Source: Bacteroidota bacterium
GTDB taxonomy: Bacteria; Bacteroidota; Bacteroidia; Chitinophagales; Chitinophagaceae
Length of the DNA: 64,000 bases
Direction of reading: 5' to 3'
NCBI GenBank assembly: GCA_016868815.1
Contig: VGFQ01000010.1
Coordinates: 1-64,000, forward strand
Below, in pieces: positions 32,501-62,629 of this stretch (position 1 is the first letter of the stretch; each line of letters begins with the position of its first letter). The notes beneath the pieces are model-generated. The model was not told the origin of the DNA. It searched no databases and saw nothing but the letters and a program-made list of their open reading frames with translations. The translations under genes were made by a program, and so were the position numbers.

Positions 32501-33062
32501 CGTCGAACAGAAGAACGATTTGATTTCTGCCAAAGACAACCTCGTTCAAACCATTATGGAGGTGGAAGCCACCGCCAACCAACGGTTTCTGGATACCTTC
32601 AACCAAGTCCGGGAAAACTTCCAGAAAGTCTTCAAAGCCCTTTTCACCGAAGAGGACACCGCAGAGATGATCTTAGAAGACCCCTCCAATCTCTCAGAAA
32701 CAGGCATCGACATTGTCGCAAAGCCCAAAGGCAAACGCCCGACCTCCATCACCCAGCTCAGCGGCGGAGAAAAGACTCTGACAGCCACCGCGCTCCTCTT
32801 TGCCATCTACCTGATTAAACCTGCCCCTTTCTGTATCCTGGATGAAGTCGATGCCCCCCTGGACGACGTCAACGTGGCCAAATTCACTGGCATGATCCGT
32901 CAGTTTAGCAAAGAGTCGCAGTTCATCATCGTCACCCACAATAAAAGTACTATGTCTGCCGTCGACATCATTTATGGTGTGACCATGCAGGAAGCCGGTG
33001 TCAGCAAACTTGTGGCGGTAGATTTCCGCAGCATCCAGCAAGATAAGGTATTGGCAAGCTGA
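29514..33062 (+). CDS. smc: Chromosome segregation ATPase SMC
   Basis: 1182 residues starting with GTG at 29514. The Walker A motif GPNGCGKS is at 31-38, long coiled coils fill about 165-500 and 665-1000, the hinge lies between (around DIVYVQEEYRAALENVLEPY to FVMGQYTLTGGSVG), the ABC signature LSGGEK is at 1082 and Walker B ILDEVDAPLDD at about 1108. SMC with ScpA/ScpB organises and segregates chromosomes; the scp genes are not here. The upstream 216 bp are AT-rich and should hold the promoters for this gene and the divergent oxidoreductase. Confidence 0.95.
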   Translation: MRLKSLDIKGFKSFADKTVIHFDEGITGIIGPNGCGKSNIVDSIRWVIGEHKISNLRSENLESLVFNGSKSRSASGLAEVSLTFENTRNLLPTEFNTVTVTRKFYKNGESEYRLNDVQCRLKDIHNLFLDTGVTSDSYAIIELGMVDDIIRDKDNSRRRMLEQAAGISIYKTRKKEARLKLDATEQDLARIEDLVFEIHNQLKILEGQARKAERYIEIRKEYRAASVEYAKAALEGFNSSYEGLIAEQGTSTDRKHQLEADIALQDAALEQERLDFIERERQLQALQGSFNELLNNIRTRENEKSLTVQRLQHLREREVQLKDYLEKAERQMIDFRENVEFTEVQRAEEEVRTTAQVAQVEQARLDMEEKRKGFDSRRATVDTMRRENQAMQRQQFDAEKQVAVGDASLQNMRRTIQQMTQDQELRHTQMKEVAQEISSADTELQQSRQALAQLQEDHERTKGLILETQSALEGIRSQLAEENRRLDARVNEHALLKSLIDSMEGYPDSVKFLHKNPDWNHHSPILSDIVYVQEEYRAALENVLEPYLNYYVVQNLAEGMRAVQLLDANQKGKANFFLLDRLAGLTKSSSNVKPIAGTISALDVVEFDPSYVRLVKYLLGHVRIAEGDIPRQPVAGVVILDRTGRFVMGQYTLTGGSVGLFEGKKIGRVKNLKKLSQEIHTLEQQVKVLKSSLQERHDKVIDYNRQLDEQAIRRKQEQVNGFTQSVFSLKNKQENLQQAEATTSLRLEELAVMLAAGQKDVSSARTHLNALNKKMSQVTARMHHVETEYASTEKEYNHSVGQHNEANIQLARQQARLNGLKQELDFKKKQVEELTEQMSNSQAQLQEASQLIGETAEALASLEADIVQFMRRKDQDERTLNEADRTYYTIRSVITEKEGMIRQKTRDKDQLDQQLNLIKDKVNDIKLHLAGIRERLNVEFKIDIEQIWNDPRQTTNTPEELHIACERMKKRLESIGDVNTTAIEAYAEVKKRFDFIVEQKNDLISAKDNLVQTIMEVEATANQRFLDTFNQVRENFQKVFKALFTEEDTAEMILEDPSNLSETGIDIVAKPKGKRPTSITQLSGGEKTLTATALLFAIYLIKPAPFCILDEVDAPLDDVNVAKFTGMIRQFSKESQFIIVTHNKSTMSAVDIIYGVTMQEAGVSKLVAVDFRSIQQDKVLAS

Positions 33063-33463
33063 CCATTATGCAGATCCAGCCACTTCGGTCCTATTGGAAG
33101 TTGGGGCCAGCTAAAATTTTTTTTCAATCTTTTATTATGGAATATCTAATGTCGCGTATTTTACACTCGTTAGATTATATACAAGTCAGCTGCCTCTGAT
33201 TTTGATCCGTATCCCCCCAAAAGCCACCATACCGTTTTCCAATATCACGGGCAATTGACAGTCCCTGCTAACAGCTACCTCACGTCAGCTGTATCCAGAA
33301 ACATGTCAGCCTCGCCGCAGTCTAACTGAGTGGCATCCGATCATCGCCAGGCCGAAATATGGTCGTGTTCGTATGATTCAGTCACCACTCGCTGCAGCGC
33401 ACAAGTGAAAAGTACCTGTTCTCTGACATTCTCGTATTACCGAAACTGTCCAATTCAATGGGT

Positions 33464-33538
33464 ATGCGATCTCTTGCGTGGCTTGTTGCCGCATCTGATG
33501 CGCCCATGGAGAAGACAGAGGGTCATATGAGATCGCAT
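33464..33538. repeat. Inverted repeat with 10-bp arms
   Basis: ATGCGATCTC (33464-33473) and GAGATCGCAT (33529-33538) are perfect inverted arms. Inside them CGCATC-T-GATGCG (33490-33502) is another palindrome. They could form a nested stem in RNA. Confidence 0.55.
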
Positions 33539-46897: not shown

Positions 46898-46928
46898 CTG
46901 TTCAAAGATAGGATCTGTGGAAAGAATC

Positions 46929-46936
46929 TATTTTTG
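46929..46936 (+). promoter_or_regulatory. Promoter -7 element of lipB
   Basis: TATTTTTG matches TAnnTTTG but ends only 4 bp before the lipB ATG at 46941, so the transcript would start at or almost at the start codon. No clear -33 TTG is found. Confidence 0.4.
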
Positions 46937-46940
46937 CAGC

Positions 46941-54448: not shown

Positions 54449-54546
54449 ACACTGCCTTTCTCTGAAAAATATCGAAACATATTGCCCGCTGTTTTGATAT
54501 CTTTCAATCATTCTCCAGAATATTTTTTTCCAATCACTTATTACCG

Positions 54547-54554
54547 TATATTTG
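54547..54554 (+). promoter_or_regulatory. Promoter -7 element of the aromatic operon leader
   Basis: TATATTTG matches TAnnTTTG exactly. It ends 3 bp before the leader ATG at 54558, so the leader would be translated from the very 5' end or from a slightly later start such as TTG 54582. No strong -33 TTG is seen. Confidence 0.5.
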
Positions 54555-54557
54555 ACT

Positions 54558-54638
54558 ATGATCAATCGTAGCACATACCGATTGTATTTCTCCTACTTCT
54601 ATTTTGAAGCGGGATCGGGATGTCTTGGGTTGTCATAA
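54558..54638 (+). CDS. Tyr/Phe-rich leader peptide of the aromatic operon
   Basis: A 26-residue frame, ATG to TAA: MINRSTYRLYFSYFYFEA then GSGCLGLS. Residues 7-16 contain four Tyr and three Phe. Shortage of charged tRNA-Tyr or tRNA-Phe should stall the ribosome there. The frame ends between the two halves of the predicted antiterminator, as in leader peptides such as pheL of E. coli. It is too short for usual gene callers. The start could also be TTG 54582, which keeps most aromatic codons. Confidence 0.8.
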   Translation: MINRSTYRLYFSYFYFEAGSGCLGLS

Positions 54639-54688
54639 AATTGCATACAACAACAAGGGATCCCGGCCGATGAGCCGGGATTTTTTTT
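54616..54688 (+). promoter_or_regulatory. Transcription attenuator of the aromatic operon
   Basis: The terminator is ATCCCGGC (54660-54667), loop CGATGA, GCCGGGAT (54674-54681), then Ts to 54688. The alternative pairing is CGGGATGTCTTG (54616-54627) with CAAGGGATCCCG (54654-54665): eleven of twelve positions pair (one G-U), with one mismatch. The two share 54660-54665 and exclude each other. 54616-54627 lies in the last codons of the leader frame, so a ribosome that reaches the stop masks it (terminator forms), while one stalled on Tyr/Phe codons leaves it free (read-through into pheA, 12 bp after the T-run). Confidence 0.8.
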
Positions 54689-54700
54689 AACCATTGGCGC

Positions 54701-55567
54701 ATGACATCCCTCCAGCCACGATCATCTTTGGCAAACCGCCCTGTCCGTGTTTCCATTCAAGGCTACGAAGGAAGCTTTCACCAAGAGGCGGCCCGTCGTT
54801 TTTATGGCCCGGAGGTGGAGGTCATCCCTTGTGCCACCTTCCGGGAAGTCGTAAAAATTGCCTCCTCCCGCAAAGAATCAGACGGAGGGGTGATGGCCAT
54901 CGAGAACTCTATCGCAGGCAGCATTCTGCCCAACTACCACCTGCTCCAGCGCTCCTCACTCTGCATCATAGGGGAAGTCTACCTACAGATCCGACAGCAG
55001 CTCCTCACATACCCCGGCGTAACCCTCGCAGACATCCGGGAAGTTCACTCTCATCCAATGGCCTTGCAGCAATGCCTAGACTTCCTCGACAAGCATCGCT
55101 GGAAGCTGGTAGAGTCTGAAGATACCGCCCTGAGTGCGAAAAAACTCATGCAGCACAAAAGCCGACACACGGCAGCCATCGCCAGCAAACTGGCGGCTGA
55201 TCTCTTCGGCTTGCAAGTGCTGGCACCCAATATCCACACCATGAAAAACAATTACACGCGTTTCCTCTTCCTCCAGCCGGAGAAAGAGGCGATGCCAGTG
55301 GAGCTTGCCGACAAGGCATCCCTCACCTTCCATACCGACCACTCCCATGGGAGCCTGGCACGAGTGCTCACTCAGATTGCCGACGTCGGCATCAACCTCA
55401 GCAAACTGCAGAGCTTTCCCATCCCTGGCTCTGACTTTAAATACAGCTTCCATGCCGACCTGGAATTCGAGGAGTTCGCCCAGCTGCAGAAATTACTTCA
55501 GTCTATACAAGCCATCACCGACTCCCTCCGCATCTTAGGCGTCTACCGCCGCGGCTCCTTCAAATAA
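54701..55567 (+). CDS. pheA: Prephenate dehydratase
   Basis: 288 residues. The catalytic domain has GYEGSFHQEAARRFYG, IENSIAGSI and the NNYTRFLFL motif (Thr-Arg-Phe) that is essential in the family. An ACT domain follows at about 205-280 (SHGSLARVLTQIADVGINLSK), where phenylalanine usually binds as feedback inhibitor. It converts prephenate to phenylpyruvate. It is the first structural gene after the attenuator; its stop overlaps the next start by one base. Confidence 0.93.
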   Translation: MTSLQPRSSLANRPVRVSIQGYEGSFHQEAARRFYGPEVEVIPCATFREVVKIASSRKESDGGVMAIENSIAGSILPNYHLLQRSSLCIIGEVYLQIRQQLLTYPGVTLADIREVHSHPMALQQCLDFLDKHRWKLVESEDTALSAKKLMQHKSRHTAAIASKLAADLFGLQVLAPNIHTMKNNYTRFLFLQPEKEAMPVELADKASLTFHTDHSHGSLARVLTQIADVGINLSKLQSFPIPGSDFKYSFHADLEFEEFAQLQKLLQSIQAITDSLRILGVYRRGSFK

Positions 55568-56769
55568 TGAAAATGAAAACATGCACGACGGCACAGCGGC
55601 TGGAGGGTATCGGTGAATACTACTTCTCCAAAAAACTCAGAGAGATCGCAGAGATGGACCTCCTAGGCGATAAAGTTATCAATCTGGGTATCGGAAGCCC
55701 AGACCTGCCCCCACATCCGGAGGTCCTGCAGGCCTTGCAGGAAGCATCGGCCCGCCCAGACGCACATGCCTACCAGTCTTACAAAGGCTCACCCATACTT
55801 CGGAGGGCCGTCGCAGATTGGTATGCCCGTTGGTATCATGTATCTCTCGATCCGGACCGCCAGGTGCTACCACTCATCGGAAGTAAAGAGGGCATCCTGC
55901 ACATCTGCATGACCTATCTCGACCCGGGCGACCTGGCGCTGGTGCCCAACCCGGGCTATCCTACCTATCGGAGTGCTGTCCGCCTGGCCAATGGCGAAGT
56001 CCTGGAATATCGGCTAGAAACCGCCAACGATGGTTATCCAGACTTAAACGCCCTGGAGCATGTCTGTGCGGAGCATACCCGTCATGGTCGGAAGGTGAAG
56101 TTGATGTTCGTCAACTATCCCCACATGCCCACTGGCAGACTTCCCCAGCGACATACCATGGAGCGGCTGGTGGATTTCGCCCGGCAACAGGGTATCCTGC
56201 TAGTGCACGACAACCCGTATAGCTTCATCCTGAATGATCAGCCCATGAGTCTCTTGTCGGTGACAGGTGCGATGGATGTGGCGATGGAACTGAACTCACT
56301 GAGCAAGTCGCACAACATGGCGGGATGGAGGGTCGGCATGTTATGCGCCGCCGGCGAGCGGATCGATGAAGTGCTTCGATTCAAGAGCAACATGGATAGT
56401 GGAATGTTTCTGCCAGTGCAACTGGCAGCCGCCAAAGCCCTGTCGCTGGGCCTGGAATGGCACCAAGAACTCAACCACACCTACGCGAACCGCCGTCAGG
56501 AGGCAACGGCCATCCTCGAAGGGCTTGGCTGCACAATAGCCCCAGGGCAGGCGGGCATGTTCCTCTGGGCAAAGATCCCGGAGACCGCTGTAGATGGCTA
56601 TGCGCTGAGTGATGTCGTCTTGCAACAAGCCCGCGTCTTCATCACGCCCGGCGGCATCTTTGGCGATGCCGGAGACAATTACCTGAGGGTCAGCCTTTGC
56701 AGTCCAGTTGACACCTTGCTCGCTGCAAAGCAACGGATACAAAAAAACCTGAAGACATTGAATGCTTAA
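55567..56769 (+). CDS. Class I/II PLP aminotransferase, probable aromatic aminotransferase
   Basis: 400 residues, fold type I. The PLP Lys is K247 in LSKSHNMAGWR, with GIGSPDLPPH near the start, YQSYKGSP, NPGYPTY and FVNYPHMPTG (His-Met where many relatives have Asn-Asn). Placed between pheA and tyrA, it most likely makes phenylalanine and tyrosine from phenylpyruvate and 4-hydroxyphenylpyruvate (inference from context). The family also includes LL-diaminopimelate and aspartate aminotransferases. Confidence 0.85.
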   Translation: MKMKTCTTAQRLEGIGEYYFSKKLREIAEMDLLGDKVINLGIGSPDLPPHPEVLQALQEASARPDAHAYQSYKGSPILRRAVADWYARWYHVSLDPDRQVLPLIGSKEGILHICMTYLDPGDLALVPNPGYPTYRSAVRLANGEVLEYRLETANDGYPDLNALEHVCAEHTRHGRKVKLMFVNYPHMPTGRLPQRHTMERLVDFARQQGILLVHDNPYSFILNDQPMSLLSVTGAMDVAMELNSLSKSHNMAGWRVGMLCAAGERIDEVLRFKSNMDSGMFLPVQLAAAKALSLGLEWHQELNHTYANRRQEATAILEGLGCTIAPGQAGMFLWAKIPETAVDGYALSDVVLQQARVFITPGGIFGDAGDNYLRVSLCSPVDTLLAAKQRIQKNLKTLNA

Positions 56770-56775
56770 GTAACA

Positions 56776-57639
56776 ATGAAAGCAACATCCATAGAGCCCA
56801 AGATCATCACGGTCATTGGCGTTGGACTGATCGGCGGGTCGCTGGCGCTGCGCCTGCGCGCCGGAGGACTTGCCTCCCGCATCCTCGGCGTGGACAACCA
56901 GGAGGCGCATGCCAGCAAAGCCCTGGAGCTTGGACTGGTCGATGCGATGATGTCGCTGGAAGAGTCCGTCGCCTGCTCTGACACTATATTCTTATCCATC
57001 CCGGTGGACAGCGCCGTCCAGATATTACCAAATCTACTGGACAAAGTCGACCATCAGATTGTTATAGACCTTGGCTCGACAAAGTCTGACATCGTGGCAG
57101 CGGTCCGTCATCATCCCCGACGCGGTCGCTTTGTGGCCTCTCACCCCATGTGGGGAACAGAGTATAGTGGCCCTCAAGCGGCTGTCGCTGGCGCGTTTCA
57201 GGGTAAGTCGGTCATTCTATGCGACGTAGCCGACAGCGATGCGGATGCCTTGGAATGGGCTAAGCACCTTTTTCATGCGATCGGCATGCACATCACCGAG
57301 ATGGATGCCGTCGCCCACGACATACATGCAGCCTATGTGAGTCATATTTCCCATGTCACCTCCTTCGCACTGGCGAACACCGTCCTGGCAAAAGAACGTG
57401 AGGACGAGGCCATCTTCGAACTTGCCAGCGCAGGCTTCGAGAGCACCGTCCGACTGGCGAAGAGCAATCCAGACATGTGGCTTCCCATCCTCCGCCAGAA
57501 CAAAGACAATGTGCTCGACGTACTCAATGAGCACATCACTCAGCTCCGACGTTTCAAGAGCTGCCTGGAGCGTGAGAATTGGGAATACCTCCGAGAGCTG
57601 ATGCAAGACGCCAACCGCATCCGACGAATCATACAGTAA
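56776..57639 (+). CDS. tyrA: Prephenate dehydrogenase
   Basis: 287 residues. The NAD-binding motif is VIGVGLIGGSLALRLR, then DLGSTKSDIV, SHPMWGTEYSGPQAA and HDIHAAYVSHISHVTSFALA, which are the conserved catalytic segments of TyrA. No ACT domain is attached, so feedback may be weak. It oxidises prephenate to 4-hydroxyphenylpyruvate. It is separated from the aminotransferase gene by 6 bp. Confidence 0.92.
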   Translation: MKATSIEPKIITVIGVGLIGGSLALRLRAGGLASRILGVDNQEAHASKALELGLVDAMMSLEESVACSDTIFLSIPVDSAVQILPNLLDKVDHQIVIDLGSTKSDIVAAVRHHPRRGRFVASHPMWGTEYSGPQAAVAGAFQGKSVILCDVADSDADALEWAKHLFHAIGMHITEMDAVAHDIHAAYVSHISHVTSFALANTVLAKEREDEAIFELASAGFESTVRLAKSNPDMWLPILRQNKDNVLDVLNEHITQLRRFKSCLERENWEYLRELMQDANRIRRIIQ

Positions 57640-57678: not shown

Positions 57679-58770
57679 ATGCAAACGACCCCGACAGCAA
57701 CCGCCGCTTCACTGATTACAGATAAATGGGAGAAGCGGCCACTCCTTATCTCAGGGCCCTGCAGCGCAGAAACCGAGGAGCAATTGGTGACTACAGCACA
57801 ACAACTTGCTGCCACCGGCAAGGTGGATGTCCTTCGGGCTGGTATCTGGAAGCCACGTACCAAGCCCGGTATGTTTGAAGGCATAGGCGCAAAAGGCCTA
57901 CCCTGGCTGCAGCAGGCAAGGAAGCTCACCGGTATCCCCACCACCGTAGAAGTGGCCACCGGTAAGCAGGTACAAGATGCACTTACCTTCGACGTAGACA
58001 TGCTTTGGATTGGTGCCCGCACCACCGTCAATCCATTCAGCGTACAAGAAGTTGCAGACGCCCTGCGCGGCGTCCAGGTGCCCGTATTCATCAAAAACCC
58101 TATCAACCCCGACCTGGAGTTATGGGGAGGTGCCGTAGAGCGTGTAGCCCGTGCAGGCATCTCCCGGATAGGCCTGATACATCGTGGGTTCTCTTCCTAT
58201 GGGAATACAGAGTTTCGAAATGCCCCCATGTGGCACCTGGCCATCGAGATGAAGCGCAGGCACCCGGAGATGCTCATGGTGAATGACCCATCTCATATCT
58301 GCGGCCGGAGGGATATCCTCCTGGACGTAGCACAAAAGGCTATGGACCTCGACTTTGACGGGCTGATGATTGAAAGTCACCTAGATCCTGACAATGCCTG
58401 GAGCGATGCCAAACAGCAAGTCACGCCGGCCCGACTGGCAGAGATGTTCGACAACATAAAGTGGCGCCATGAAGATGTCGCCTCGGAATCTTTTCATATG
58501 GCGCTCGACAAACTCAGGGAACAGATCAACCATGTAGACGATGAACTGCTCGATCTACTCGCCCAGCGCATGCGCATTGCAGAAAAAATCGGTGAATACA
58601 AGCGGAACAATGCTGTGACCATCCTGCAGACCAACCGCTGGAATCAGGTCCTAGAGAAATCCTTCGGAAAGGCTGACAAGCTGGGCCTGAGTCGCGAGTT
58701 TGTCACCCGCTATCTCGACGCGGTTCACATGGAAAGCATCAACCGACAAAACAGGGTGATGAACGGCTAG
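57679..58770 (+). CDS. Fused DAHP synthase-chorismate mutase
   Basis: 363 residues. The N-terminal about 265 residues are a short (type Ibeta/KDPG-like) DAHP synthase: LISGPCSAETEEQ, RAGIWKPRTKPG, WIGARTTVNPF, FIKNPINPD, NDPSHICGRRD and MIESHLDPDNAWSDA. Residues about 272-355 are an AroQ-type chorismate mutase (LDKLREQINHVDDELLDLLAQRM). It joins the first pathway step to the first step of the Phe/Tyr branch, with the mutase domain a possible regulatory module. It starts 39 bp after tyrA. Confidence 0.93.
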   Translation: MQTTPTATAASLITDKWEKRPLLISGPCSAETEEQLVTTAQQLAATGKVDVLRAGIWKPRTKPGMFEGIGAKGLPWLQQARKLTGIPTTVEVATGKQVQDALTFDVDMLWIGARTTVNPFSVQEVADALRGVQVPVFIKNPINPDLELWGGAVERVARAGISRIGLIHRGFSSYGNTEFRNAPMWHLAIEMKRRHPEMLMVNDPSHICGRRDILLDVAQKAMDLDFDGLMIESHLDPDNAWSDAKQQVTPARLAEMFDNIKWRHEDVASESFHMALDKLREQINHVDDELLDLLAQRMRIAEKIGEYKRNNAVTILQTNRWNQVLEKSFGKADKLGLSREFVTRYLDAVHMESINRQNRVMNG

Positions 58771-58783
58771 CCAACCTCAACGC

Positions 58784-59215
58784 ATGTCATTGTTAAAATC
58801 ATATCTGTATGTACACGCGGTCTGGTCCGTCAGCGGACAAAGACCACTGCTGCAGCGCAGTGTCCGTACCGTACTGTCGGCTCATATGCTCAAATCTGCC
58901 GAGGAAAAAGGGATCCGAATCCTGAAAGCAAACGGAGGGGCCGACCATCTACATCTACTCCTCCATCTTCATCCGGCCCAGAACCTAGCACAGCTGGTCC
59001 GACAGCTCAAGTCTGAGAGTACTGACTGGCTCAATACTACTCAGATCGTATCTGAGTCATTTCAATGGGAAGAAGACTTTGTGGCGTATAGCGTGAGCCC
59101 GAATGTGATTCGGCAGGTATCCGAATACATCGACCGACAGGAAGAGTATCACCTCACAAAGACCTTCCAGGATGAAATGGCCGTCTTCGATGCCTTGCAG
59201 TCCAACCAACCCTAA
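58784..59215 (+). CDS. Y1/HUH transposase-like protein (IS200/IS605 family) inside the aro operon
   Basis: 143 residues. The HUH motif is DHLHLLL (H55, H57) and the catalytic Tyr motif is EYIDRQEEYH, giving Y115 and Q119 in the YxxxQ arrangement of TnpA-type enzymes. The length matches complete IS200/IS605 transposases. It sits 13 bp after the DAHP synthase stop and 13 bp before aroB, same strand, without visible subterminal hairpins or a partner tnpB. It may be a recent IS200-like insertion without recognisable ends or a domesticated copy (RAYT-like). All active-site residues are kept. Confidence 0.85.
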   Translation: MSLLKSYLYVHAVWSVSGQRPLLQRSVRTVLSAHMLKSAEEKGIRILKANGGADHLHLLLHLHPAQNLAQLVRQLKSESTDWLNTTQIVSESFQWEEDFVAYSVSPNVIRQVSEYIDRQEEYHLTKTFQDEMAVFDALQSNQP

Positions 59216-59228
59216 GCCGCACGCTGAC

Positions 59229-60296
59229 ATGACCCCCTCTGCGACATACCGTTTCTCTGCGCAGTCCGTTGATTATTTTTTTGGCGGTCGTCTTTCCTCT
59301 CTGTCAAAACACTGCCAAAAGAAGTCTACGGTGCTGTTGATGGATGAAACCGTCCATGCCTTACATGGCGCGTGCTTCAAAGACTGGGACATCCTCACCA
59401 TCCCCTCTGGAGAGCAGTATAAAGTCCAGTCAACGGTAGACCGCATCATAGGTGAGCTCATCGAGCGGAAGGCGGACCGATCCTTTACCCTGGTAGGTGT
59501 TGGCGGCGGCGTCGTCACTGACCTGACCGGTTATGCGGCCTCCGTATACATGCGTGGCATATCCTTCGGCTTTCTGCCAACTACACTGCTGGCCATGGTG
59601 GATGCCTCCATCGGAGGGAAAAACGGCATTGACGTAGGAGCCTACAAGAATATGGTGGGTGTCATCCGACAGCCTGGCTTCATCCTCTACGACTGGTCAT
59701 TTCTACGGACCCTGCCAGACACACTCTGGTCGGATGGTTTTGCGGAAGTCATCAAGCATGCCTGCATCCGCGATGCGGCCGCCTTTCGACTCCTGTCCAG
59801 CTACGATGTGAAACGCTTGCAAAAGAAGTCGGACATCCTCCACGGCCTAATCGAAAGAAATGCCCGCATGAAGTCGGCCATCGTTCGGCGCGATGAGTTT
59901 GAGTGCAATGAGCGGCGACTGCTAAACTTTGGACATACGCTGGGGCATGCCATCGAGACGGTGCACCAGCTCAGCCACGGACAGGCTGTCGCCATCGGGA
60001 TGGTACTGGCCAGCCAGCTCTCAGCGCAGCGGCTGGGCTTCAGTGGCACAGAAAAGCTACAAGACGTATTGCAGGCCTACGGGCTGCCTATAACACATCG
60101 CTATGATGCGACGAAAGTGTTGGAAGTCCTCCGCCTAGACAAGAAACGGGTGAGCCTTGACATGAATGAGGTGTTGCTGGAACGCATCGGTAAGGGTGTC
60201 GTGCAAAAGATCGCTTTGGCCTCCTTTGAAGAATGGGTGCGGCAGGCGGCAGAGGCGCAACAGCCTGCTTTTCGAAAGCCACCAAAAAAAAGTTGA
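59229..60296 (+). CDS. aroB: 3-dehydroquinate synthase
   Basis: 355 residues from ATG 59229; upstream frame overlaps the transposase-like gene. The NAD-binding loop VGVGGGVVTDLTGYAASVYMRG, then TTLLAMVDASIGGKNGID and the metal-ligand segments SDGFAEVIKHA and NFGHTLGHAIE identify AroB. It closes DAHP to 3-dehydroquinate. It is followed by aroA 12 bp later. The C-terminal Lys/Pro-rich end is short. Confidence 0.93.
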   Translation: MTPSATYRFSAQSVDYFFGGRLSSLSKHCQKKSTVLLMDETVHALHGACFKDWDILTIPSGEQYKVQSTVDRIIGELIERKADRSFTLVGVGGGVVTDLTGYAASVYMRGISFGFLPTTLLAMVDASIGGKNGIDVGAYKNMVGVIRQPGFILYDWSFLRTLPDTLWSDGFAEVIKHACIRDAAAFRLLSSYDVKRLQKKSDILHGLIERNARMKSAIVRRDEFECNERRLLNFGHTLGHAIETVHQLSHGQAVAIGMVLASQLSAQRLGFSGTEKLQDVLQAYGLPITHRYDATKVLEVLRLDKKRVSLDMNEVLLERIGKGVVQKIALASFEEWVRQAAEAQQPAFRKPPKKS

Positions 60297-60308: not shown

Positions 60309-61622
60309 ATGATTGCAACCGTCCATCCATCCACGCTGAAAGGGCATCTCGTCTCACCCCGCTCCAAGAGCGCCATGCAGCGTGCTTGTGCGGCGGCCTT
60401 GTTGCGTCATGGACAGACGGAGATACGGCTCCCCGGACAGAGCAATGACGACCTGGCGGCCATGGACGTCATCACGCGCCTGGGGGCCACCATCCATGAG
60501 TCTGATGCCGCCCTGCTGGTGCAGAGCCAGGGCGTGCATCCCAAATCCGATGCGGTCCACTGCGGCGAGAGCGGGCTGGGCATACGGATGTTCACCCCGA
60601 TTGCTGCGCTTTCTCCCCGACGGCTGCTGCTGACAGGTGCGGGCTCCCTGGTGACGAGGCCGATGGATTTCTTCGATGCTGTCCTTCCCCAGCTAGGAGT
60701 GATGGTGTCATCACAGCAGGGAAGGTTGCCATTGTCTATTCAGGGCCCGCTGCGTCCGGCGGATATCACCGTCGACGGTTCCCTCAGTTCCCAGTTTCTG
60801 ACGGGGCTGCTCATGGCCTTCTCCGCCGCAGGCGCCTCTGACGTGACCATCCGTGTCGAAGGTCTAAAGAGCCGACCCTATATTGATTTAACGCTCTCGG
60901 TCATGCGCAGTTTCGGCATGCATATGCCAGACACGACGGCTGGTGATGTGTTTCATTTTCCCGTCTATATTCCAAGCCTTGCGATGACTGAGCCGCTGTG
61001 TTATACGGTAGAAGGTGACTGGAGTGGGGCCGCCTTTCTGGTGGTGGCGGCCGCCCTGGCAGGCGATCTTGCTATTGAGGGCCTCGACGTGGCATCAGTA
61101 CAGGGTGATAAGGCCATCCTCACAGCCCTAGCGTCTGCCGGTGGACAGTTTCATGTCGGTGCCGACGGCCGGCTATATATTGCACAGACATCGCTACAAG
61201 CCTTTGCTTTCGATGCCACCGAGTGCCCGGACCTATTCCCTCCGCTGGCGGCCCTTGCAGCCTGCTGTGCTGGGACCTCCGTCATACAAGGTGTTGGCAG
61301 GCTGGCGCATAAGGAAAGCGACCGTGGACAGACCCTCCAACAGGAGTTTGGGAAGTTGGGAGTGTCGATCCGCCTGGAGGAAGACCTGATGTTTATTGAG
61401 GGAGGCGGAGCCATTCTGGCTGGTAATGTCCATTCCTGTCATGACCATCGCATCGCCATGTCGCTAGCGGTGGCAGCCTTGAGGGCCCAGGGACCTCTAC
61501 GCATCGAGGCAGCCGAAGCCATTGGGAAGTCCTACCCGCATTTTTTCGATGACATGGTCTCATTGGGGGCAGGCATTCATCGATCCGGAAGCCTGCCAAC
61601 CACCGTCTTCACACCAGAATAA
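60309..61622 (+). CDS. aroA: EPSP synthase (3-phosphoshikimate 1-carboxyvinyltransferase)
   Basis: 437 residues. The N-terminal SPRSKSAMQRACAAALL (shikimate-3-phosphate Lys), LPGQSNDDLAAM, CGESGLGIRMFTPIA (in place of the usual GNAGTAMR), GSLSSQFLTGLLMA, LAHKESDRGQTL and SCHDHRIAMSLAVAAL are the signatures of EPSPS. The altered GNAGT-type loop is common in this phylum. It makes EPSP from shikimate-3-phosphate and PEP. aroC follows 5 bp later. Confidence 0.93.
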   Translation: MIATVHPSTLKGHLVSPRSKSAMQRACAAALLRHGQTEIRLPGQSNDDLAAMDVITRLGATIHESDAALLVQSQGVHPKSDAVHCGESGLGIRMFTPIAALSPRRLLLTGAGSLVTRPMDFFDAVLPQLGVMVSSQQGRLPLSIQGPLRPADITVDGSLSSQFLTGLLMAFSAAGASDVTIRVEGLKSRPYIDLTLSVMRSFGMHMPDTTAGDVFHFPVYIPSLAMTEPLCYTVEGDWSGAAFLVVAAALAGDLAIEGLDVASVQGDKAILTALASAGGQFHVGADGRLYIAQTSLQAFAFDATECPDLFPPLAALAACCAGTSVIQGVGRLAHKESDRGQTLQQEFGKLGVSIRLEEDLMFIEGGGAILAGNVHSCHDHRIAMSLAVAALRAQGPLRIEAAEAIGKSYPHFFDDMVSLGAGIHRSGSLPTTVFTPE

Positions 61623-61627
61623 AGAGT

Positions 61628-62629
61628 ATGAATCGATTCGGAAAACACTTCAGCGTCACCATCCTCGGTGAGTCTCACGGCGACGGGGTGGGGATTGTCA
61701 TCGACGGCTGCCCAGCCGGACTGCCCCTTGCCGTGGAAGATTTCATCGCCGACATGGAGCGACGAAAGGGTGGCCTCCAGAAAGGCACAACCCCCCGGCA
61801 AGAGGAAGATCTCCCGCAATTCCTCACTGGCTTGTTCATGGGACGTACGACGGGGGCACCCCTCACCCTCTTCTTCCCCAACCGCAATACCCGCTCGGCT
61901 GACTATGAAAAACAACGTGCCGTGCCAAGGCCCGGCCATGCTGATTTTGTCGCCCATCACAAGTTCGGTGGCTTTGAAGACTATCGTGGGGGCGGGCATT
62001 TCAGCGGTCGCTTGACGGCATGTCTAGTGGCAGCTGGCGTGATTGCGAAGCGACTGCTGACACCAGTACAGATCGAGGCCACGATCCTGGAGATTGGTGG
62101 CATTCCTGATATAGAGAAAGGTTTGGAGCAGGCCATTCAGCACAAGGACTCTGTTGGAGGAATGGTAGAATGCCGCGCCAAGGGGCTTCCTCTGGGACTG
62201 GGAGAACCTTTCTTCAACTCCGTAGAATCTTTGTTGGCGCATGCGGCCTTTTCTATCCCCGCGGTGAAAGGCGTCGAGTTCGGGGCAGGCTTTGCCGCTG
62301 CCCGTATGTTTGGCTCCGAACATAATGATCCCATCACAGACTTGCAGGGTCATACGGCCAGCAACCACGCAGGAGGGATCGTGGGAGGGATCACCAATGG
62401 CAACGAGCTCGTGTGGAGGGTTGCCGTCAAGCCGACATCTTCTACGCCCAAAGAACAGGTGACCTTGAATTGGGAGACTGGCGAGACGGAGCTATTCTCC
62501 GTCAAAGGTCGTCACGATCTATGCATTGCTTTACGGGTACCGCCCGTCCTGGAAGCTGTGACCGCCATGGTGTTGGTTGATCTTATGCTGGAGGCTCATA
62601 AAATACCCAGGGTACTTTGCTCGTTATAG
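61628..62629 (+). CDS. aroC: Chorismate synthase
   Basis: 333 residues. Family motifs GESHGDGVGIVIDGCPAG, RPGHADF, DYRGGGHFSGR and the later FGSEHND and NHAGGIVGGITNG are all present. It converts EPSP to chorismate with reduced FMN. The protein is a little shorter than average for AroC. aroE, aroK and aroD/Q are not in the window, so the pathway is completed elsewhere. Confidence 0.94.
   Translation: MNRFGKHFSVTILGESHGDGVGIVIDGCPAGLPLAVEDFIADMERRKGGLQKGTTPRQEEDLPQFLTGLFMGRTTGAPLTLFFPNRNTRSADYEKQRAVPRPGHADFVAHHKFGGFEDYRGGGHFSGRLTACLVAAGVIAKRLLTPVQIEATILEIGGIPDIEKGLEQAIQHKDSVGGMVECRAKGLPLGLGEPFFNSVESLLAHAAFSIPAVKGVEFGAGFAAARMFGSEHNDPITDLQGHTASNHAGGIVGGITNGNELVWRVAVKPTSSTPKEQVTLNWETGETELFSVKGRHDLCIALRVPPVLEAVTAMVLVDLMLEAHKIPRVLCSL

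What the first reader, a model, noticed from the sequence alone, without database searches (positions are those of the whole stretch)
54547..54700. Tyr/Phe attenuator with leader peptide ahead of a Bacteroidota aromatic operon
Seen in sequence: a 26-codon frame with seven Tyr/Phe in ten residues, a GC-rich terminator with a T-run 12 bp before pheA, and an alternative 12-position pairing (54616-54627 with 54654-54665, one mismatch) that excludes it. Geometry fits ribosome-stall attenuation: a ribosome at the aromatic codons leaves the antiterminator strand free, one at the stop codon covers it. Such control is well known for pheA in Enterobacteria. Here both Tyr and Phe codons are read and the operon contains both branches plus the entry enzyme. 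I do not know of this leader being described for this lineage. The -7 element lies directly before the leader ATG, which suggests a leaderless leader peptide and is unusual in itself.
Basis: partly seen in the sequence, partly recalled or inferred. Interest (0 to 1): 0.8.

Follow-up and report, generated by a model that had tools for sequence, protein, structure and literature searches.

The report
Leaderless Phe/Tyr attenuator before pheA
A tiny gene rich in phenylalanine and tyrosine codons, followed by two mutually exclusive RNA hairpins, most likely lets the ribosome switch an aromatic amino acid operon on or off in Bacteroidota, and in this lineage its message appears to begin at, or a few bases before, the start codon.

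Summary
Upstream of pheA lies a 26-codon frame (54558-54638) with 7 Tyr/Phe in 10 residues, an antiterminator (54615-54633 with 54647-54666) and a terminator (54660-54688).

A comparable leader lies in 31 of 34 same-genus pheA loci (the 3 misses have little or truncated upstream DNA), 77 of 80 named loci, and 60 of 85 loci sampled across the class (18 families). Both helices covary. Antiterminator pairing is reached by at most 10 of 200 shuffles in 157 of 169 sequences. Folding of transcript prefixes switches with ribosome position as attenuation requires.

The unusual part also survives. In this lineage the Bacteroidota -7 box mostly ends 3-8 nt before the leader ATG, implying a 5' UTR of about 0-4 nt; in other families it lies that close in few. 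His leaders (4 nt in 25 of 28) and Trp leaders of the same genus look alike.

Leader-peptide attenuation, and leaderless leader peptides in Actinobacteria and Sinorhizobium, are known. This is a new variant in Bacteroidota. No transcription start has been mapped.

The parts
54547..54554 (+). -7 promoter box TATATTTG (Bacteroidota TAnnTTTG), 3 nt before the leader ATG
   Evidence: Sequence; an exact box within 12 nt of the leader ATG in 29 of 31 same-genus leaders; -33-like TTG about 22 nt upstream in relatives. In the window itself the -33 site is only a T-run.
54558..54638 (+). Leader peptide frame, 26 aa, MINRSTYRLYFSYFYFEAGSGCLGLS, with stop TAA
   Evidence: comparable leaders; pN/pS 0.44 over 63 nearest pairs
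54576..54605 (+). Regulatory codons: 7 Tyr/Phe codons in 10 (Y7 to F16)
   Evidence: all 171 frames counted hold both Phe and Tyr
54615..54633 (+). Antiterminator 5' arm, inside the last codons of the leader frame
   Evidence: (0 of 200 shuffles reach the pairing energy); covariation
54647..54666 (+). Antiterminator 3' arm; 54660-54666 is shared with the terminator 5' arm
54660..54688 (+). Intrinsic terminator: ATCCCGGC / CGATGA / GCCGGGAT, then T-run
   Evidence: (hairpin -15.6 kcal/mol by RNAfold); covariation
54701..55567 (+). pheA, prephenate dehydratase (PF00800)
55567..56769 (+). Class I/II aminotransferase (PF00155)
56776..57639 (+). tyrA, prephenate dehydrogenase
57679..58770 (+). DAHP synthase fused to chorismate mutase (PF00793 + PF01817)
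59172..60296 (+). aroB, 3-dehydroquinate synthase
60309..61622 (+). aroA, EPSP synthase
61628..62629 (+). aroC, chorismate synthase

Best explanation
This is a ribosome-mediated transcription attenuator that senses charged tRNA-Phe and tRNA-Tyr and controls the pheA-aminotransferase-tyrA-DAHP synthase/chorismate mutase operon (and probably aroB-aroA-aroC). Transcription starts at, or within a few nucleotides of, the leader ATG, so the leader peptide is read from a leaderless or nearly leaderless mRNA. With Phe or Tyr short, a ribosome stalls on the aromatic codons; the last codons of the frame stay free, pair with the downstream strand (antiterminator), and RNA polymerase reads into pheA. With both plentiful, the ribosome reaches the stop codon and covers that strand; the terminator forms and transcription ends 12 bp before pheA. 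Shown by sequence and comparison: the leader frame, the two alternative helices with compensatory changes, their geometry, and the position of the promoter box. Inferred: translation, stalling, termination, the transcription start, the extent of the operon, and that both amino acids are sensed.
For: Leader and terminator in 31 of 34 same-genus, 77 of 80 named and 60 of 85 class loci. On 50 leaders, terminator: 97.1% of cells paired, 6 of 9 pairs with changes on both sides, 0 of 500 shuffles reach any of the five measures; antiterminator: 87.4% paired, 6 of 13 pairs with changes on both sides, 0 of 500 on four measures and 4 of 500 on the fifth. Antiterminator pairing reached by at most 10 of 200 shuffles in 157 of 169 sequences. 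Transcript prefixes ending at the terminator loop: antiterminator in 168 of 168 with a ribosome in mid-run and 165 of 168 at the last aromatic codon, against 6 of 168 with the ribosome at the stop. The antiterminator starts 7-12 nt after the last aromatic codon in 153 of 168 and in all three frames of the leader (39/78/51), so RNA rather than peptide is kept there. Both Phe and Tyr in all 171 frames counted, matching an operon with both branches. Promoter box beside the ATG; His and Trp leaders of the same genus alike. No Rfam family matches the window at gathering scores.
Against: No transcription start, term-seq, ribosome profile or expression data. On the full-length leader the static minimum-energy fold holds the terminator in 159 of 168 sequences without a ribosome and in 114 of 168 even with a stalled one, so the switch depends on the antiterminator forming first during transcription. 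With no ribosome, 147 of 168 prefixes form the antiterminator, so the E. coli-like default of termination without translation is not predicted for most. In one search the two outermost antiterminator pairs are unpaired in 23 and 19 of 50 sequences, and sliding the partner by +1 gives 22 cells with changes on both sides against 19 observed (though only 39.6% paired against 87.4%). Twenty-five of 85 class loci and 6 of 8 same-order loci outside the family lack an accepted ATG leader. The window's own -33 element is poor. Leader codons are only moderately constrained (pN/pS 0.44; 66 of 592 aromatic positions change to non-aromatic between nearest pairs).
Confidence: 0.9

Rival explanations
1. The attenuator is real, but the mRNA is not leaderless: the true transcription start lies further upstream and the TAnnTTTG beside the ATG is not the promoter used.
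For: No 5' end is mapped. In other families of the class the box is often farther away: of 45 printed leaders without a box within 12 nt, 21 have one 15-33 nt upstream and 24 have no exact one within 60 nt. The window lacks a clear -33 TTTG. In 14 of 28 His leaders of other genera of the family the gap is 10-18 nt.
Against: Exact box within 12 nt in 29 of 31 same-genus and 64 of 78 named leaders, against 3 of 55 elsewhere in the class and 2 of 255 ordinary ORFs within 9 nt. TTG at 21-23 nt before the box start: 20 occurrences in 28 distinct same-genus and 44 in 68 distinct named promoters (the sets overlap). His leaders of the genus fixed at 4 nt in 25 of 28.
Confidence: 0.2
2. The terminator is controlled by a ligand, tRNA or protein (riboswitch, T-box, RNA-binding protein); the short frame is incidental.
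For: Such systems also use terminator/antiterminator pairs; T-boxes control aromatic genes in Firmicutes (recalled).
Against: No Rfam match; only about 105 nt between promoter box and terminator, mostly the leader frame; aromatic frames recur in 18 sampled families with similar spacing to the antiterminator; His codons before hisG and Trp codons before trpE in the same genus.
Confidence: 0.04
3. The leader peptide acts as a small protein (arrest peptide or trans-acting peptide) rather than by codon-specific stalling.
For: Leader peptides can act in trans (peTrpL of Sinorhizobium, PMC7298713, listing and passages seen); some N-terminal residues recur within the genus.
Against: Phe and Tyr interchange often (78 swaps among 592 aromatic positions of 63 nearest pairs); the C-terminus changes frame while the RNA stays.
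Confidence: 0.05

Closest known systems
Classical leader-peptide attenuators of Enterobacteria (pheL-pheA, trpL, hisL; recalled)
   Same: Short frame rich in codons of the product amino acid, overlapping antiterminator and terminator, T-run before the first gene.
   Different: Here Tyr and Phe codons are mixed, the ribosome-free prefix mostly forms the antiterminator rather than a 1:2 hairpin that frees the terminator, and the leader has almost no 5' UTR. The Enterobacterial features are recalled.
Structured 5' element before pheA (and hisG) in Flavobacterium psychrophilum and other Flavobacteriaceae (PMC9723704, passages seen)
   Same: Same phylum, same gene; the authors report strong clues for leader-peptide attenuation before amino acid biosynthesis operons, and no Rfam hit for the pheA element.
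   Different: The passages seen give no sequence or mechanism for pheA; supplementary tables could not be read. That paper counts 5.5% leaderless mRNAs in F. psychrophilum, so a leaderless leader would be unusual for the phylum.
Leaderless leader peptides in Actinobacteria (Streptomyces lividans leuL, trpL1, ilvL and others, PMC8079986; Corynebacterium glutamicum ilvBNC discussed as leaderless, PMC11857589) and Sinorhizobium meliloti trpL (PMC7298713); passages seen
   Same: The leader peptide start codon is at the 5' end of the mRNA.
   Different: Other phyla and mostly other amino acids; supported by transcript data in the S. lividans and Sinorhizobium papers, here inferred from promoter motifs.
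Aromatic amino acid attenuator of Corynebacterium glutamicum (Neshat et al. 2014, title seen only in a reference list) and the 'pheA' RNA motif candidate of Actinobacteria (one table row of PMC2864571)
   Same: Attenuation or a structured RNA linked to aromatic amino acid genes.
   Different: Actinobacteria; neither sequence was compared here.

Membership tests
Ribosome-mediated transcription attenuator (leader-peptide type) | Short frame with regulatory codons for the operon's product | tested here: met
   (frame and codons; translation itself not shown)
Ribosome-mediated transcription attenuator (leader-peptide type) | Intrinsic terminator between leader and first gene | tested here: met
   (termination itself not shown)
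Ribosome-mediated transcription attenuator (leader-peptide type) | Mutually exclusive antiterminator supported by covariation | tested here: met
Ribosome-mediated transcription attenuator (leader-peptide type) | Geometry: a stall leaves the antiterminator strand free, a ribosome at the stop covers it | tested here: met
   (prefix folds with assumed ribosome edges)
Ribosome-mediated transcription attenuator (leader-peptide type) | 1:2 pause / anti-antiterminator hairpin | tested here: inconclusive
   without a ribosome 147 of 168 prefixes form the antiterminator, while in 131 of 168 at least 6 bases of the late codons pair with the leader 5' part
Ribosome-mediated transcription attenuator (leader-peptide type) | Read-through rises when the amino acid is limiting | not testable with these tools
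   Needs expression data
Leaderless mRNA | Transcription start at the start codon | tested here: inconclusive
   Promoter boxes at short, often fixed distance support it; no mapped 5' end
T-box / riboswitch in Rfam | Match to a curated RNA family | tested here: not met
   0 matches at gathering scores in the whole window

The most novel reading that the evidence does not exclude
The class Bacteroidia carries an old set of leader-peptide attenuators (mixed Phe/Tyr before pheA, His before hisG, and at least in this genus Trp before trpE). In the window's genus all three have nearly or wholly lost the 5' UTR, so that a ribosome loads on the 5'-terminal AUG as it leaves RNA polymerase. Leaderless loading would then replace the Shine-Dalgarno sequence and the pause hairpin as the device that keeps ribosome and polymerase in step.
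Probability: 0.5. Interest if true: 0.72.

Novelty: new variant of a known kind. Interest (0 to 1): 0.6.

Why it matters
A 2010 survey knew of no leader-peptide system of this kind outside Proteobacteria and Actinobacteria before its own Firmicutes example (PMC2965389, passages seen). In Bacteroidota I saw only hints: one Flavobacterium and one Bacteroides transcriptome paper (PMC9723704, PMC7366714, passages seen). Here amino-acid attenuation looks like a common regulatory device across much of a class whose mRNAs lack Shine-Dalgarno sequences (as PMC9723704 notes for flavobacteria). Mixed Phe/Tyr codons fit an operon that feeds both branches. The nearly leaderless form in one lineage, beside ordinary spacing in other families, is a natural experiment on how ribosome loading and transcription are kept in step.

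Tried and rejected
Riboswitch or T-box: no Rfam match. Chance short frame: not excluded by the window alone (29 of 3000 shuffles) but excluded by conservation. Generic sigma-70 and terminator scans were uninformative. Static folding of whole leaders favours the terminator in most sequences and would not by itself show a switch; prefix folding does. A Val/Ile/Leu-rich leader before ilvD was looked for in 30 loci: 4 unrelated frames turned up and no conserved one. The homoserine dehydrogenase loci were fetched but not scanned. A scan of the whole genome for further leaders was not possible. Literature: all ten paper searches turned up no paper that I could see to describe a Bacteroidota pheA leader in detail; only listings and passages were read, and supplements could not be. 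No phylogenetic tree was built, so the number of times the leaderless form arose is unknown. His and Trp leaders were not tested against shuffles, and the relaxed box used for Trp was chosen after seeing sequences. Rows dropped: L043 and L044 (contig pieces) from all leader counts; L050, L115 and L194 as doubtful frames; L143 and L115; L115, L143, L050 and L194; 48 of 98 distinct stretches from the alignment, chosen by me mostly to leave out the group with a different leader C-terminus.

Full report
WHAT IS THERE. The intergenic stretch before pheA (54449-54700) holds the -7 box TATATTTG (54547-54554), a 26-codon frame from ATG 54558 to TAA 54638 with 7 Tyr/Phe in residues 7-16, and a terminator hairpin 54660-54681 with a T-run to 54688, 12 bp before pheA. 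Downstream come pheA, an aminotransferase, tyrA, DAHP synthase fused to chorismate mutase, an IS200-like transposase gene, aroB, aroA and aroC, all on the plus strand. The set feeds both the Phe and Tyr branches and includes the entry enzyme. That all of it is one operon is inferred.

IS IT MORE THAN CHANCE. In the window alone the aromatic frame is only modestly unlikely (29 of 3000 dinucleotide shuffles; the sole such ATG frame in 64 kb), while the antiterminator pairing energy is not reached in 200 shuffles.

RELATIVES. PheA was sought in 60 relatives, of which 42 matched, in 296 genomes of the class, of which 90 matched, and in a collection of named genomes, from which the best 80 of at least 585 loci were kept. 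Of 34 same-genus loci, 31 have the leader; the three misses hold 33, 159 and 260 nt upstream, the last with a truncated match. Of 8 loci from other families of the order, 2 have it (L034, L038); one miss holds only 117 nt upstream. Of 80 named loci, 78 gave a frame and I accept 77: L194 looks spurious, L144 has none, L206 holds 177 nt upstream. Eight named contigs equal same-genus or same-family contigs in length, so these sets overlap; from that and the record titles I infer that the family is Chitinophagaceae. Most of the 80 titles name Chitinophagaceae or its genera, broader groups, or unplaced Bacteroidota MAGs.

CLASS SAMPLE. Of 85 loci fetched (L045-L129, of 90 matching genomes; the own genome and L038 were already in hand and three were not fetched), 62 gave an ATG frame; I discard L115 and L050 as doubtful, leaving 60 in 18 families (19 with L034). 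L048 has a GTG-started one. L103's terminator lies 161 nt beyond its stop. Over all sets 34 loci gave no ATG frame; in 20 of them a same-strand open frame of at least 80 codons ends within 260 nt upstream of the pheA start or overlaps it, so pheA may not come first there; the other 14 have no such frame, and some of those hold ample upstream DNA.

STRUCTURE. On an alignment of 50 leaders (of 98 distinct stretches prepared), the terminator has 97.1% of cells paired and 6 of 9 pairs with changes on both sides, and the antiterminator 87.4% and 6 of 13; no shuffle of 500 reaches the covariation score of either. Against: the two outermost antiterminator pairs fail in 23 and 19 of 50 sequences, and one slid control has more cells changed on both sides (22 against 19), though only 39.6% paired. 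Across 169 sequences from the whole set, 157 have at most 10 of 200 shuffles reaching their antiterminator pairing energy, 131 at most 2 (near-duplicates included). In 168 sequences at least four bases of the terminator 5' arm can pair with both partners, with many different sequences; these pairings were chosen as the best found, so that count alone is no test. The antiterminator begins 7-12 nt after the last aromatic codon in 153 of 168 and lies in all three frames of the leader (39, 78, 51), which shows that RNA rather than peptide is kept there.

SWITCH. Folding transcripts that end at the terminator loop: ribosome in mid-run, 168 of 168 form the antiterminator; at the last aromatic codon, 165; at the stop, 6; no ribosome, 147. 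With the full leader and no kinetics the terminator wins in 159 of 168, and in 114 of 168 with a stalled ribosome. The switch therefore needs the antiterminator to form before the terminator's second arm is made; without a ribosome most leaders would be expected to read through.

CODING. Over 63 nearest pairs pN/pS is 0.44; of 592 aromatic positions 377 codons are unchanged, 62 synonymous, 87 swapped among aromatics (78 of them Phe/Tyr) and 66 changed to another residue. All 171 frames with a terminator contain both Phe and Tyr (L050, L115 and L143 included).

LEADERLESS FORM. Exact TAnnTTTG within 12 nt of the leader ATG: 29 of 31 same-genus leaders (gaps 3-8, and two of 10 where a second ATG was chosen) and the other two with a one-mismatch box; 64 of 78 named leaders (58 of them at 4-8) with 9 more showing a one-mismatch box; 2 of 4 same-family class loci; 2 of 5 leaders of other families of the order, so the close box is not confined to the family; and 3 of 55 in the rest of the class, 4 more with a one-mismatch box. 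Of 45 printed class leaders without a close exact box, 21 have one 15-33 nt away and 24 have none within 60 nt. Among 255 ordinary ORFs with free upstream DNA, 2 have the box within 9 nt (first ATG taken as start, not verified). In F. psychrophilum the sigma-A box lies at -12 to -5 (PMC9723704, passages), so a gap of 4 nt puts the start on the A of ATG and 8 nt gives a 4-nt 5' UTR. Leaderless mRNAs are rare in the two mapped species (5.5% in that paper; about 3.7% with less than 10 nt in B. thetaiotaomicron, PMC7366714, passages). TTG, as in the -33 element TTTG, piles up 21-23 nt before the box (20 occurrences in 28 distinct same-genus and 44 in 68 distinct named promoters). The window itself shows only a T-run there.

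OTHER LEADERS OF THE GENUS. Before hisG, 28 of 30 same-genus loci (of 32 genomes with a match) have a His-rich ATG frame, with the box (TAnnTTYG) exactly 4 nt before the ATG in 25; in 30 loci of other genera of the family, 28 have it, 12 with gaps up to 9 nt, 14 with 10-18 nt and 2 with no box; in 28 loci of other families, 25 have it, 9 with gaps up to 9, 10 larger, 6 without a box. Before trpE, 30 of 30 same-genus loci (of 35 genomes with a match) have a Trp-His frame and 25 a box-like site, under a relaxed pattern, 4-7 nt before the ATG. The window's own genome has both: MCTSLRLRHHHSSPAR before hisG (gap 4) and MTALKINGWWHSNS before trpE, the latter with only a degenerate box.

KNOWN OR NEW. 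Leader-peptide attenuation is classical. Leaderless leader peptides are reported in Streptomyces lividans and Sinorhizobium (passages). For Bacteroidota, passages mention strong clues for leader-peptide attenuation and a conserved element before pheA and hisG in Flavobacteriaceae without Rfam match, and short frames in long 5' UTRs of B. thetaiotaomicron. In ten paper searches (listings, and passages of eight papers) I saw no description of the mixed Phe/Tyr leader, its class-wide spread, or its leaderless form. Novelty: a new variant of a known kind.

Noticed in passing
58784-59215: An IS200-like (Y1) transposase gene sits among the aromatic genes between the DAHP synthase/chorismate mutase gene and aroB, whose longest frame overlaps its end.
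   Followed up: no
46898-46940: A 43-bp gap between a divergent pseudouridine-synthase-like gene (minus strand, start 46897) and a lipoate-transferase-like gene (plus strand, start 46941) holds two opposed -7-like boxes 5 and 4 nt from the two ATGs, so both genes may be leaderless. The gene names are recalled from the sequences, not from a search.
   Followed up: partly
L238 (G000:C16, upstream of 41264): His-rich leader frame MCTSLRLRHHHSSPAR with a -7 box 4 nt before its ATG and a terminator-like hairpin before hisG in the window's own genome.
   Followed up: partly
L257 (G000:C8, upstream of hit 33027-33467, minus strand): Trp leader frame MTALKINGWWHSNS and a terminator-like hairpin before trpE in the window's own genome.
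   Followed up: partly
L210 and L236: Two same-genus hisG loci depart from the usual arrangement: in L210 no His-rich frame was found, and in L236 it seems to follow closely on another gene, without a box.
   Followed up: no
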